Assembly (NCBI GenBank): GCA_903832625.1
Contig: CAILCI010000058.1
Span: forward strand, 1-64,000
Direction: 5' to 3'
Origin: an uncultured Burkholderiales bacterium
Lineage (GTDB): Bacteria; Pseudomonadota; Gammaproteobacteria; Burkholderiales; Burkholderiaceae_C
Length of the DNA stretch: 64,000 bases
This document shows, piece after piece, positions 17,094-20,592 of the stretch. Position numbers and translations under genes: made by a program. Each line of letters opens with the position of its first letter. Position 1 is the first letter of the stretch. The notes under the pieces are model-generated. The model was not told the DNA's origin and did no database searches. It saw nothing but the letters and a program-made list of their open reading frames with translations.

Positions 17094-17720
17094 GTGTATT
17101 TACCTCCTCAATTCAAAGCCAAAGATGATGCCCATGCGTTCGACATCATGCGGGCGCATCCCTTGGCCAGCCTGATCAGCCATGATGATGAGGGCTTTCC
17201 TTTTGTCAGCCATTTGCCCATGCATTTGCAACTGCGTGGCGATCAGCCGGTGCTCCTAGCCCATGTGGCCAAAGCCAATCCACACGGACAGTTTTTAAAA
17301 AAACGACCCCAAGCCTTGGTGACTTTCATGGGGCCGCAGGCCTATATGTCGCCCAAGGTCTACCCCGATCTCACCCGCGTCCCCACTTGGAGTTATCTGG
17401 CCGTTCACGCCAAGGTCGATGTGGTGATGCTGGACGACACACCAACCAAAGACCGCTTGCTCAAGCACCTCATTGCCGACCATGAGGCCACTTACGCTAA
17501 GCAATGGCGCGGGCTAGAGGCGGATTATCAAGACAAGCTGTTGGCTGGCATTGTGGCGTTTGAATTGCACATCACATCGCTTCAATGCAAGCTCAAGCTC
17601 AACCAACATCGTCCTGAATCGCACGCCGCCATGCACGCAGCCTATGCTCAGGGAACGCCTGACGAACAAGCTTTGGCGCAATGGATGCTCAAGCTTGGGT
17701 TGGTCGAGCTCAAAGGCTGA
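17094..17720 (+). CDS. PaiB-family FMN-binding protein
   Basis: This 208-residue protein of the PaiB/FMN-binding negative regulator family starts 'MYLPPQFKAKDDAHAFDIMRAHPLASLISHDDEGFPFVSHLPM', with 'VTFMGPQAYMSPKVYPDLTRVPTWSYLAVHA' in the middle. The start codon is GTG with no strong ribosome site. PaiB in Bacillus is linked to protease and sporulation control, but the fold resembles pyridoxamine-phosphate oxidases and most homologues are uncharacterised. It ends five bases before the tadA fusion gene and is probably cotranscribed with it. Confidence 0.85.
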   Translation: MYLPPQFKAKDDAHAFDIMRAHPLASLISHDDEGFPFVSHLPMHLQLRGDQPVLLAHVAKANPHGQFLKKRPQALVTFMGPQAYMSPKVYPDLTRVPTWSYLAVHAKVDVVMLDDTPTKDRLLKHLIADHEATYAKQWRGLEADYQDKLLAGIVAFELHITSLQCKLKLNQHRPESHAAMHAAYAQGTPDEQALAQWMLKLGLVELKG

Positions 17721-17725
17721 TCGTG

Positions 17726-18961
17726 ATGGCGCCAACAAGCGATCACGCAACCCCCAACAACGCCCAGCTCGAGGCAGACGAATTTTTCATGCGCCAAGCC
17801 TTGGTTCAGGCGCAACAGGCGGCACAAGTGGGTGAAGTGCCTGTCGGTGCGGTGGTCGTGCGTCAAGGCCAAGTCATTGCAGCGGCACACAACGCGCCCA
17901 TTTCCAACCAAGACCCGAGCGCGCACGCAGAAATCAATGCCATGCGCCAAGCTGCGCGCTTGCTGGGCAATTACCGTTTGGAAGATTGCACCCTGTACGT
18001 CACGCTAGAGCCTTGCACCATGTGCAGCGGTGCATTGCTCAACGCCCGTTTCAAGCGCGTGGTGTTTGGCGCGAATGAACCGCGAACTGGCGCGGCTGGC
18101 TCGGTACACAACGTCTTTGGCATTGCAAGCCTCAACCCGCAAACGCAGATCAGCGGCGGCGTATTGGCGCAAGACTGCGCCGCGGTCATGCAAGATTTTT
18201 TCAAGACACGCCGCGATAACCCCAATCCGTTGCGTGATGATGCGCTGCGCACGCCCGACGCGTGCTTTGCGTCTTTGCACGACTTTGCCTGGCCCGCTCA
18301 CTATCTGAGCGATTTGCCCAGTTTGCAGGGCTGGCGTATGCACTACATTGACGCAACTGCGCAGCAGCCTGCGGCAAATGAGGTGGCGGCCACAGAGTTA
18401 AGCGACCTCCCAGCAGCATCAAACACAAATCCCAGCACCAGCCGCCCGCAGTCTTTCACCTTCTTGTGTCTGCACAGCCACGACAGCTGGGGCTACCTTT
18501 ACCGCGACATGTTGCCCGTGCTCGTCGGTGCGGGCCATCGTGTGCTTGTCCCCGATTTGATTGGTTTTGGCAAAAGCGACAAGCCCAAAAAACCAGCGGT
18601 TCACACCTTGGAATTTCACCGCGACTATGTCTTGGCGTGGTTGACGCGCTTGGATGTGCAAGACTGTGTGTTGGTGTTGCCGCAAGCGAACGACGCCTTG
18701 GGTGTGAGTTTGCTGGAGTCGTTGAGCTTCATTGGCATCATCACGACGCAAACAAACACCACGGCACTCAAGCGCAATGACCAAGCCGCTTTGCAAGCGC
18801 CTTACCCCGACAAAGGCCATCGCGCAGCGCCTCAAGCCATGTCTGAATGGCGCAATTTGACGCAGCCCAAGCCCTGGCCCATTCGCCACCTCGATTTGAA
18901 TTTATCCCCGCTAACGCATGGCTCGACCATTGCCCAAGAAGCCGTGAAGTTTTTTACATGA
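17726..18961 (+). CDS. tadA: TadA tRNA adenosine deaminase fused to a degenerate haloalkane-dehalogenase-like domain
   Basis: Residues 1-165 are TadA, which deaminates A34 to inosine in tRNA-Arg; zinc ligands and catalytic Glu are present as 'HAEINAM' (His67) and 'PCTMC' (Cys97, Cys100). Residues about 170-411 resemble haloalkane dehalogenases: 'CLHSHDSWGYLYRDMLPVLVGAGHRVLVPDLIGFGKSDKP' fits well. The nucleophile elbow, GQDWGG in active relatives, reads 'PQANDALG', and most of the cap and the C-terminal His region appear missing, though a remnant of 'APYPDKGHRA' can be aligned. The second domain therefore looks like a pseudoenzyme. The start is just after paiB; the stop overlaps the next gene as ATGA. 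Both domain calls come from reading the sequence; the loss of activity is inferred. Confidence 0.85.
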   Translation: MAPTSDHATPNNAQLEADEFFMRQALVQAQQAAQVGEVPVGAVVVRQGQVIAAAHNAPISNQDPSAHAEINAMRQAARLLGNYRLEDCTLYVTLEPCTMCSGALLNARFKRVVFGANEPRTGAAGSVHNVFGIASLNPQTQISGGVLAQDCAAVMQDFFKTRRDNPNPLRDDALRTPDACFASLHDFAWPAHYLSDLPSLQGWRMHYIDATAQQPAANEVAATELSDLPAASNTNPSTSRPQSFTFLCLHSHDSWGYLYRDMLPVLVGAGHRVLVPDLIGFGKSDKPKKPAVHTLEFHRDYVLAWLTRLDVQDCVLVLPQANDALGVSLLESLSFIGIITTQTNTTALKRNDQAALQAPYPDKGHRAAPQAMSEWRNLTQPKPWPIRHLDLNLSPLTHGSTIAQEAVKFFT

Positions 18962-19635
18962 CCGTATTTGCTCCTAATCCTCTCGGCTATGACATCAAAT
19001 TTGAGAGGGTGGGCGTACACGGCGGCCTAGATTTGCACATCCGCTCGCTGTTGGACAAGCAGCAGTTTTTTGACCCCGACCATTTGGCTTTGGACGCAGG
19101 CATTTCATCGGCCACTTGGCCTTTGTTTGGCTTGGTTTGGCCGTCAGCGCAAAAGCTGGCCGACCTCATGCAGACCTGGGTGTTGGGCGACAAACGCATT
19201 TTGGAAGTGGGCTGCGGCTTGGGGCTGGCGAGTTTGGTGGTGCATCGCCGTTTGGGCAACGTCACAGCCAGCGACTGCCATCCGCTGACCGAACTCTTTT
19301 TGAAAGCCAATTTGGCGCTCAACCATTTGCCGCCACTGCCTTATGTCACGGGCAACTGGGGGCGAGTGAATGCGGGTTTGGGGCAGTTCGATTTGCTCAT
19401 GGCCAGCGATGTGCTCTATGAGCGCGACCATCCGGCGCAGCTCTCAGGCTTTATTCAAACCCATGCAGCTGAGGGCGCAGAGGTCATCATCATCGATCCC
19501 AACCGGGGCAACCGCAGTGCGTTTCATCGTGACATGGCAAACATGGGTTTTTCGGTCGATGAGGTCATGCTCACCGAGCCTTTGGAAAACCTCAGTCCTT
19601 ATCGCGGCCGCTTGTTGCATTACACGCGGCATTGA
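18958..19635 (+). CDS. Class I SAM-dependent methyltransferase
   Basis: This 225-residue Rossmann-fold methyltransferase has SAM motif I 'ILEVGCGLGLASLVVHRRLGNVTASDCHP' and the acidic loop 'FDLLMASDVLYERDHPAQL', features of the METTL21/nicotinamide-N-methyltransferase-like group that often modifies protein lysines. The start is taken at 18958, where ATGA overlaps the tadA-fusion stop; the longer ORF is a read-in from that gene. The substrate is unknown. Its place between tadA and ldcA may be only operonic. Confidence 0.8.
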   Translation: MTVFAPNPLGYDIKFERVGVHGGLDLHIRSLLDKQQFFDPDHLALDAGISSATWPLFGLVWPSAQKLADLMQTWVLGDKRILEVGCGLGLASLVVHRRLGNVTASDCHPLTELFLKANLALNHLPPLPYVTGNWGRVNAGLGQFDLLMASDVLYERDHPAQLSGFIQTHAAEGAEVIIIDPNRGNRSAFHRDMANMGFSVDEVMLTEPLENLSPYRGRLLHYTRH

Positions 19636-19662
19636 AAGAATTTGCCCTGACAATGGCGGCTT

Positions 19663-20592
19663 ATGGCACACATCTACATTTATTCCCCCAGCGGCGCGGT
19701 GCGCGACAAAGCGGCGTTCAAGCGCGGCGTCTCGCGTTTGAAACAACTCGGTCATGAGGTCGAGCTCGATGCCGACGCCTTGAGCCGATCCACCCGTTTT
19801 GCTGGCGATGACGCAACACGCCTAGCGGCCATCCATCGTGCAGCCGCCAGTGGCGCCGACTTGGCGTTGATTTCGCGCGGCGGCTATGGCCTGACACGCA
19901 TCTTGCCCGCCATTGGCTACAAAGCCGTGGCCAAAGCCATTGCCCAAGGCACACAGTTCATGGGCTTGAGCGATTTCACGGCGTTTCAAAACGCCGTGTT
20001 GGCCAAGACGGGCGCCATCACATGGTCGGGCCCGGCTTTGGGCGAAGACTTTGGTGCAGAGCAGCCCGACGACATCATGGAAGCTTGTTTTGACGACGTG
20101 TTGAGCGGGCAGGGCGAGGGCACAGGTTGGCAGTTTTCCAAAGCCACGGCGGGCGTCTATGCTGACAAACGACAAGGCGTGTGGGCGAAAGACGCGGTGT
20201 TGTGGGGCGGGAATTTGTCGGTCTTGGTCAGCCTGTTGGGCACACCGTATTTCCCGCAAGTCAAAGGCGGTATTTTGTTTTTAGAGGATGTGGCCGAGCA
20301 TCCCTATCGCATTGAGCGCATGTTGACGCAGTTGCTGCACGCGGGCGTGTTGGCGCAGCAAAAAGCGGTGGTCTTGGGGCAGTTCACAAACTTCAAACTC
20401 ACGCCACACGATGCGGGTTTCAAGCTGCAAAGCGTGGTCGATGGGTTGCGCAAGCAAATCAAAGCGCCAGTGCTCACCGATTTGCCCTTCGGTCATGTGG
20501 CCACCAAAATTTGCTTGCCTCTGGGACAAACCTTGAGTTTGGTGGTCGAAAACCGCGACGCTTTGCTGTTGTGGGGACATACCCACGCATGA
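19663..20592 (+). CDS. ldcA: LD-carboxypeptidase (peptidase S66 family)
   Basis: This 309-residue S66-family peptidase removes the terminal D-Ala from murein tetrapeptides in the cytoplasm during recycling. The family motif 'ALISRGGYGLTRILPAIGYKAVAKA' is followed by the nucleophile-containing 'MGLSDFTAFQNAV' (Ser of GxSD). 'WGGNLSVLVSLLGTPYFPQVKGGILFLEDVAEHPYRIERML' carries the catalytic Glu region. A short gap after the methyltransferase suggests the same operon. Confidence 0.87.
   Translation: MAHIYIYSPSGAVRDKAAFKRGVSRLKQLGHEVELDADALSRSTRFAGDDATRLAAIHRAAASGADLALISRGGYGLTRILPAIGYKAVAKAIAQGTQFMGLSDFTAFQNAVLAKTGAITWSGPALGEDFGAEQPDDIMEACFDDVLSGQGEGTGWQFSKATAGVYADKRQGVWAKDAVLWGGNLSVLVSLLGTPYFPQVKGGILFLEDVAEHPYRIERMLTQLLHAGVLAQQKAVVLGQFTNFKLTPHDAGFKLQSVVDGLRKQIKAPVLTDLPFGHVATKICLPLGQTLSLVVENRDALLLWGHTHA

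What the first reader, a model, noticed from the sequence alone, without database searches (positions are those of the whole stretch)
17726..18961. TadA fused to a catalytically dead haloalkane-dehalogenase-like domain
The tRNA deaminase half keeps all zinc and catalytic residues, while the hydrolase half has lost the nucleophile elbow, most of the cap and the His region. A retained but inactive alpha/beta-hydrolase domain on an essential tRNA enzyme could be a new RNA- or protein-binding module.
Basis: partly seen in the sequence, partly recalled or inferred. Interest (0 to 1): 0.7.

Follow-up and report, generated by a model that had tools for sequence, protein, structure and literature searches.

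The report
tRNA deaminase with dead hydrolase domain
An essential tRNA-editing enzyme in this bacterium carries a haloalkane-dehalogenase domain that has lost its catalytic residues, and the same loss recurs across the family while the same short non-catalytic motifs are kept, which suggests that the dead domain now does a different job.

Summary
ORF 17726-18961 is one uninterrupted frame: TadA (all zinc and catalytic residues) followed by a subfamily-I haloalkane dehalogenase (HLD-I, DhlA/DppA type). Its nucleophile Asp-Trp is Gln-Ala, and the cap, catalytic acid and base are gone. It is neither a frameshift nor a local accident. The TadA-HLD fusion is ancestral in this Comamonadaceae-like family. 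Of 66 genera fetched because their TadA frame was long, 60 were fused: 25 with an intact catalytic pentad, 35 degenerate. The tree needs about 11 intact/degenerate switches (3 forced by strongly supported branches). Degenerate tails are not random debris: close pairs have dN/dS of about 0.12-0.28, the window pair 0.48 (95% 0.32-0.70). Separate degenerate lineages keep the same blocks: DALRTP, PDLxGFGxSDKPKK and AP(F/Y)PDxGHRA. The KK and the G of GHRA were absent from the standalone HLDs examined. AlphaFold predicts a compact, capless alpha/beta fold (pLDDT mostly 85-97). Most likely the domain is a retained pseudoenzyme serving TadA as a non-catalytic accessory. tRNA contact is possible but not shown, and the tail is net acidic. 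Same-genus TadA-only genomes show that it can be lost. I found no description in the searchable literature.

The parts
17726..18223 (+). TadA tRNA adenosine(34) deaminase domain (residues 1-166), HAE and PCxxC motifs intact
   Evidence: NCBIfam PRK10860 189.8 bits over cut-off 150; 1z3a E 1.4e-44; only TadA of the genome
18224..18355 (+). former N-terminus of HLD-I acting as linker (PLRDDALRTPD...GWRMHYID, residues 167-210)
   Evidence: aligns with the N-terminus of the standalone enzyme DppA 2xt0 through the intact relative L049; A173 and R175 invariant or nearly so in degenerate forms
18356..18454 (+). low-confidence insertion peculiar to the window protein (residues 211-243)
   Evidence: absent from most relatives; pLDDT about 50-65
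18455..18679 (+). retained strands and helices of the alpha/beta core (residues 244-318)
   Evidence: Pfam Abhydrolase_1 28.2 bits over cut-off 25.8; pLDDT about 94-97
18563..18592 (+). GFGKSDKPKK block (residues 280-289), kept in nearly all degenerate forms; the KK is fusion-specific
18680..18694 (+). destroyed nucleophile elbow: PQAND in place of QDWGG (residues 319-323)
18797..18826 (+). APYPDKGHRA block (residues 358-367), kept although the rest of the cap and the acid/base regions are lost
18908..18955 (+). C-terminal helix (residues 395-410), homologous to the last HLD helix
   Evidence: alignment with EHGxxIAxxAVxFF of intact forms; helix 395-410 in the model

Best explanation
The gene encodes the cell's only TadA, carrying a C-terminal pseudoenzyme derived from an HLD-I haloalkane dehalogenase. 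An HLD-I with a complete catalytic pentad was fused behind TadA in an ancestor of this family (inferred from distribution and synteny). In the window's lineage and several others the domain lost nucleophile, halide-binding Trp, acid, base and cap (shown by alignment) and shrank to a compact capless alpha/beta domain (predicted) that stays under purifying selection (shown by dN/dS and recurrent retention of the same motifs). Inferred: through the surface around SDKPKK and PDxGHRA the domain packs on TadA or contacts the tRNA, acting as a non-catalytic stabilising or positioning module for wobble-adenosine deamination.
For: Fusion across 60 of 66 fetched genera of the family, 35 of them degenerate. 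About 11 state changes on the tree, 3 forced. dN/dS of degenerate tails 0.12-0.28 in close pairs and 0.48 [0.32-0.70] for the window pair, none of 2000 bootstraps >= 1. SDKPKK segment 89% retained in 10 degenerate groups against 8-37% for elbow, acid and base. KK and the G of GHRA absent from eight standalone HLDs. Confident fold. Conserved locus PaiB-tadA-ldcA. The gene is the only TadA and tRNA-Arg(ACG) is present.
Against: No direct evidence of contact with TadA or tRNA; the inter-domain arrangement is not reliable (pTM 0.67-0.70). The tail is not basic overall. TadA-only genomes in the same genus show it is dispensable there. The window's own lineage is more relaxed than others. Some retained motif residues are general HLD fold residues (D..G.G.SD.P).
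Confidence: 0.5

Rival explanations
1. Slow decay: the dehalogenase activity became useless and the domain is shrinking towards complete loss. What remains is kept only because an unfolded tail on an essential enzyme would be harmful.
For: Stepwise series intact, degenerate, absent; TadA-only genes cluster with degenerate L004/L013/L015 and sit at the same locus without remnants. Weaker constraint in the window lineage (0.48).
Against: Exact fusion-specific residues (KK, H293, G364) are kept in 80-95% of degenerate proteins. Tails of 170-300 residues persist in 35 genera. dN/dS as low as 0.12 in L013/L015.
Confidence: 0.33
2. The degenerate domain is still an enzyme with another substrate or mechanism.
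For: Alpha/beta hydrolases switch chemistry often (general knowledge); the predicted core is folded.
Against: No conserved replacement nucleophile: the elbow position differs between lineages (Q, S, D, E, G, A, or deleted), and acid and base are deleted in most.
Confidence: 0.07
3. The retained segments matter for translation or coupling with the downstream gene rather than for the protein.
For: In the window the next ORF starts in an ATGA overlap at 18958.
Against: Constraint is at amino-acid level (dN/dS below 1) and lies far from the junction; the downstream gene differs between relatives.
Confidence: 0.03
4. Assembly or frameshift artefact joining two ordinary genes.
For: None found.
Against: The same fusion is found in isolates and a complete genome (Polaromonas sp. 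P2-4, Limnohabitans); no HLD remnant in other frames.
Confidence: 0.01

Closest known systems
TadA, tRNA adenosine(34) deaminase (E. coli 1z3a; S. aureus 2b3j)
   Same: The N-terminal domain is a full TadA with zinc and catalytic residues; it is the only TadA of a genome that has tRNA-Arg(ACG).
   Different: Standard TadA ends near residue 160-170; this one carries about 245 further residues of hydrolase origin.
Haloalkane dehalogenase subfamily I (DhlA 1b6g/1ede, DppA 2xt0, DpaA 7avr)
   Same: The tail is homologous along its length; intact fused relatives align end to end with DppA (E 3e-107) and keep the Asp-His-Asp + Trp-Trp pentad.
   Different: The window tail lacks all five pentad residues and the cap, and is fused to TadA; the fused clade has SDKPKK and GHRA where the standalone enzymes examined have SDKP(V/A/E/L)(D/E) and (R/Q)(Y/H)(K/R)A.
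Eukaryotic ADAT2/ADAT3 wobble deaminase
   Same: Possible functional analogy: an inactive polypeptide attached to a wobble deaminase; ADAT3's N-terminal domain recognises and presents tRNA (PMC12404733).
   Different: Unrelated fold; the dead part there is itself a deaminase homologue; tRNA recognition by the bacterial tail is not shown.

Membership tests
TadA | HAE and PCxxC zinc/catalytic motifs and model score above cut-off | tested here: met
   PRK10860 189.8 bits over 150; HAE 67-69, PCTMC 96-100
TadA | deaminates A34 of tRNA-Arg(ACG) | not testable with these tools
   substrate tRNA gene present; activity not measurable here
HLD-I haloalkane dehalogenase | Asp nucleophile in the elbow | tested here: not met
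   Gln320
HLD-I haloalkane dehalogenase | two halide-stabilising Trp | tested here: not met
   Ala321; cap Trp region deleted
HLD-I haloalkane dehalogenase | acid Asp and base His | tested here: not met
   acid segment deleted, Leu at the base position
HLD-I haloalkane dehalogenase | curated model score above cut-off | tested here: not met
   PRK00870 125 bits, cut-off 265
alpha/beta-hydrolase fold (ancestry) | sequence and fold homology | tested here: met
   Abhydrolase_1 28.2 bits over 25.8; Foldseek matches to DhlA and DpaA
RNA-binding accessory domain | binds tRNA | not testable with these tools
   only indirect evidence: KPKK and GH conserved but net charge -5

The most novel reading that the evidence does not exclude
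A second function, independent of dehalogenation, arose in the fused HLD domain at a fusion-specific surface (SDKPKK plus PDxGHRA). It works on TadA or its tRNA, so catalysis could be discarded repeatedly while this surface stayed: a bacterial pseudoenzyme cofactor of wobble-inosine formation.
Probability: 0.4. Interest if true: 0.75.

Novelty: new variant of a known kind. Interest (0 to 1): 0.5.

Why it matters
Bacterial TadA is usually a small, single-domain enzyme and is the parent of adenine base editors. A conserved, repeatedly inactivated accessory domain on natural TadA proteins would suggest that wobble deamination can be tuned by an added module. It is also a well-replicated natural experiment in how an enzyme becomes a pseudoenzyme: intact, degenerate and absent states coexist at one syntenic locus in one bacterial family. 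For dehalogenase mining it warns that many TadA-fused 'haloalkane dehalogenases' lack the catalytic residues.

Tried and rejected
Frameshift or pseudogene remnants: all frames of 17600-19700 were searched with intact tails; nothing beyond the main frame. Remnant HLD behind the TadA-only genes of the same genus: none. A globally basic tail as support for RNA binding: rejected, pI 6.1. dN/dS across genera: synonymous sites saturate or are distorted by G+C, so most pairs were not used; only close pairs and the window pair were. Literature searches for a TadA-dehalogenase fusion gave nothing relevant. A 2018 dehalogenase-mining paper that, from memory, may mention deaminase fusions is not held, so earlier notice of the intact fusion cannot be excluded. 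Mapping the motifs onto 3D coordinates was not possible, because model coordinates are not exposed.

Full report
1. The window encodes one uninterrupted 411-aa protein at 17726-18961. Its first 166 residues are a bona fide TadA: NCBIfam TadA model 189.8 bits against a cut-off of 150, E. coli TadA structure 1z3a E 1.4e-44, HAE and PCxxC motifs intact. It is the only TadA of the 99.8%-complete genome; the one other hit (38% identity, 377-aa frame) fits RibD (RibD is my reading of its length and similarity). The substrate tRNA-Arg(ACG) is present. From about residue 167 the protein is a haloalkane dehalogenase of subfamily I. The 'linker' is simply the HLD N-terminus: the tail of an intact relative aligns to DppA 2xt0 from DppA residue 4 onward.

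2. The tail is catalytically dead by sequence. HLD-I uses Asp-His-Asp plus two Trp (PMC6920932). In the window the elbow QDWGG reads PQAND (Gln320, Ala321), the oxyanion His-Gly reads His-Ser, and cap, acid and base are missing. The HLD model scores 125 bits against a cut-off of 265.

3. The fusion is old and widespread. The genome scan returned its maximum of 80 loci, all fused, including Polaromonas sp. P2-4 (complete), Limnohabitans, Hydrogenophaga and Acidovorax isolates. In a draw of the window's family (111 genomes, nearly one per genus) I fetched 66 other genomes, chosen for long TadA frames: 60 are fused, 25 with the intact pentad and 35 degenerate; 6 are not fused. The rest, mostly with short TadA frames, were not fetched, so 60 plus the window is a lower bound and the intact/degenerate ratio applies to fused genes only. 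A second family (f3) also has intact fusions (L146-L148). The neighbourhood PaiB-tadA-ldcA is common among relatives (PaiB in 76 and LdcA in 96 of 111 loci), which supports one ancestral fusion.

4. Catalysis was lost more than once. On a TadA-domain tree (110 rows, 147 columns) the degenerate label needs 11 changes, of which strongly supported branches force 2. On a larger tree (135 fused rows, 272 columns) it again needs 11, with 3 forced. Resolution is modest, so 'several times' is safe and 'eleven' is only the parsimony count, which does not by itself separate loss from gain. Degenerate forms include Verminephrobacter (Gly at the nucleophile, L104), Rhodoferax, Polaromonas and several freshwater Comamonadaceae lineages. 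The window's sister is L032/L003 (support 99).

5. The dead domain is still under selection. In close degenerate pairs the whole tail has dN/dS of 0.20 [0.13-0.33] (L053/L057), 0.23 [0.16-0.32] (L035/L062), 0.28 [0.18-0.41] (L075/L103) and 0.19 [0.12-0.29] (L082/L103), and 0.12 for L013/L015. The window against L032 gives 0.48 [0.32-0.70], none of 2000 bootstraps at or above 1, against 0.12 for TadA. The window's own lineage is therefore more relaxed but not neutral. Caveats: simple Nei-Gojobori counts; part of the constraint could date from before inactivation if the two members of a pair were inactivated separately; cross-genus pairs were set aside because synonymous sites are saturated.

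6. The same pieces are kept each time. Across 10 degenerate groups, identity to the intact consensus is 89% for the segment ending in SDKPKK, 67% for the APFPDxGHRA segment (present in all groups) and 64% for the linker, but 37% for the elbow, 15% for the first cap part and 8% for the acid and base regions. In 60 non-redundant degenerate proteins, D277, G280, G282, S284 and D285 (window numbering) are invariant; K286, P287, K288 and H293 are 92-97%; K289 80%; G364 95%; H365 83%. Eight standalone HLD-I genes from other families have SDKP followed by VD, VE, ED, AD or LD and no G at the GHRA position. The KK and the G therefore belong to the fused clade. This is the strongest reason to think that the domain acquired a function separate from dehalogenation.

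7. Structure. AlphaFold with a 49-sequence alignment gives the window tail pLDDT mostly 85-97 outside the insertion 211-243: a reduced, capless alpha/beta core with a C-terminal helix. Foldseek finds TadA structures and, for the tail, DhlA and DpaA. The intact relative gives mean pLDDT 88.8. The placement of the two domains relative to each other is not reliable (pTM 0.67-0.70), and confidence may be inflated by the intact homologues in the alignment.

8. Mechanism. Shown: fusion, loss of the pentad, recurrence, selection, motif retention. Predicted: a folded capless domain. Inferred: a non-catalytic accessory role towards TadA or tRNA. Against RNA binding by bulk charge: the window tail is net -5, pI 6.1, and the median degenerate tail is about neutral. 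Against essentiality: TadA-only genes in the same genus at the same locus with no remnant. The main rival, slow decay with retention only for solubility, explains the shrinking and the TadA-only sisters but not the exact fusion-specific residues.

9. Novelty. The held literature has nothing on a TadA-dehalogenase fusion, but the library is partial and sequence databases must already contain these long TadA proteins. I call it a new variant of a known kind: a pseudoenzyme domain on a known enzyme, with an unusually clear record of repeated inactivation.

Noticed in passing
window 18958-19635: A methyltransferase ORF (Pfam Methyltransf_16) starts in an ATGA overlap with the tadA stop. It is found behind tadA in only a few close relatives (14 of 111 loci matched), whereas ldcA is the usual downstream neighbour.
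   Followed up: partly
window 18356-18454: A low-complexity insertion (residues 211-243, A/T/S/P/N-rich) inside the tail is peculiar to the window protein and has low pLDDT.
   Followed up: partly
L036: A contig titled Akkermansia muciniphila MAG carries a Limnohabitans-like tadA fusion (it groups with Limnohabitans sp. Rim28); the title is probably wrong or the bin mixed.
   Followed up: no
L146, L147, L148 (family f3): TadA-HLD fusions outside the window's family keep standalone-like SDKP(V/A)D and (T/S/A)YK(A/G)G motifs and an intact pentad, so the KPKK/GHRA signature is probably younger than the fusion.
   Followed up: partly
L104 (Verminephrobacter aporrectodeae): An otherwise full-length HLD domain with only the nucleophile Asp changed to Gly: apparently an early stage of inactivation.
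   Followed up: no
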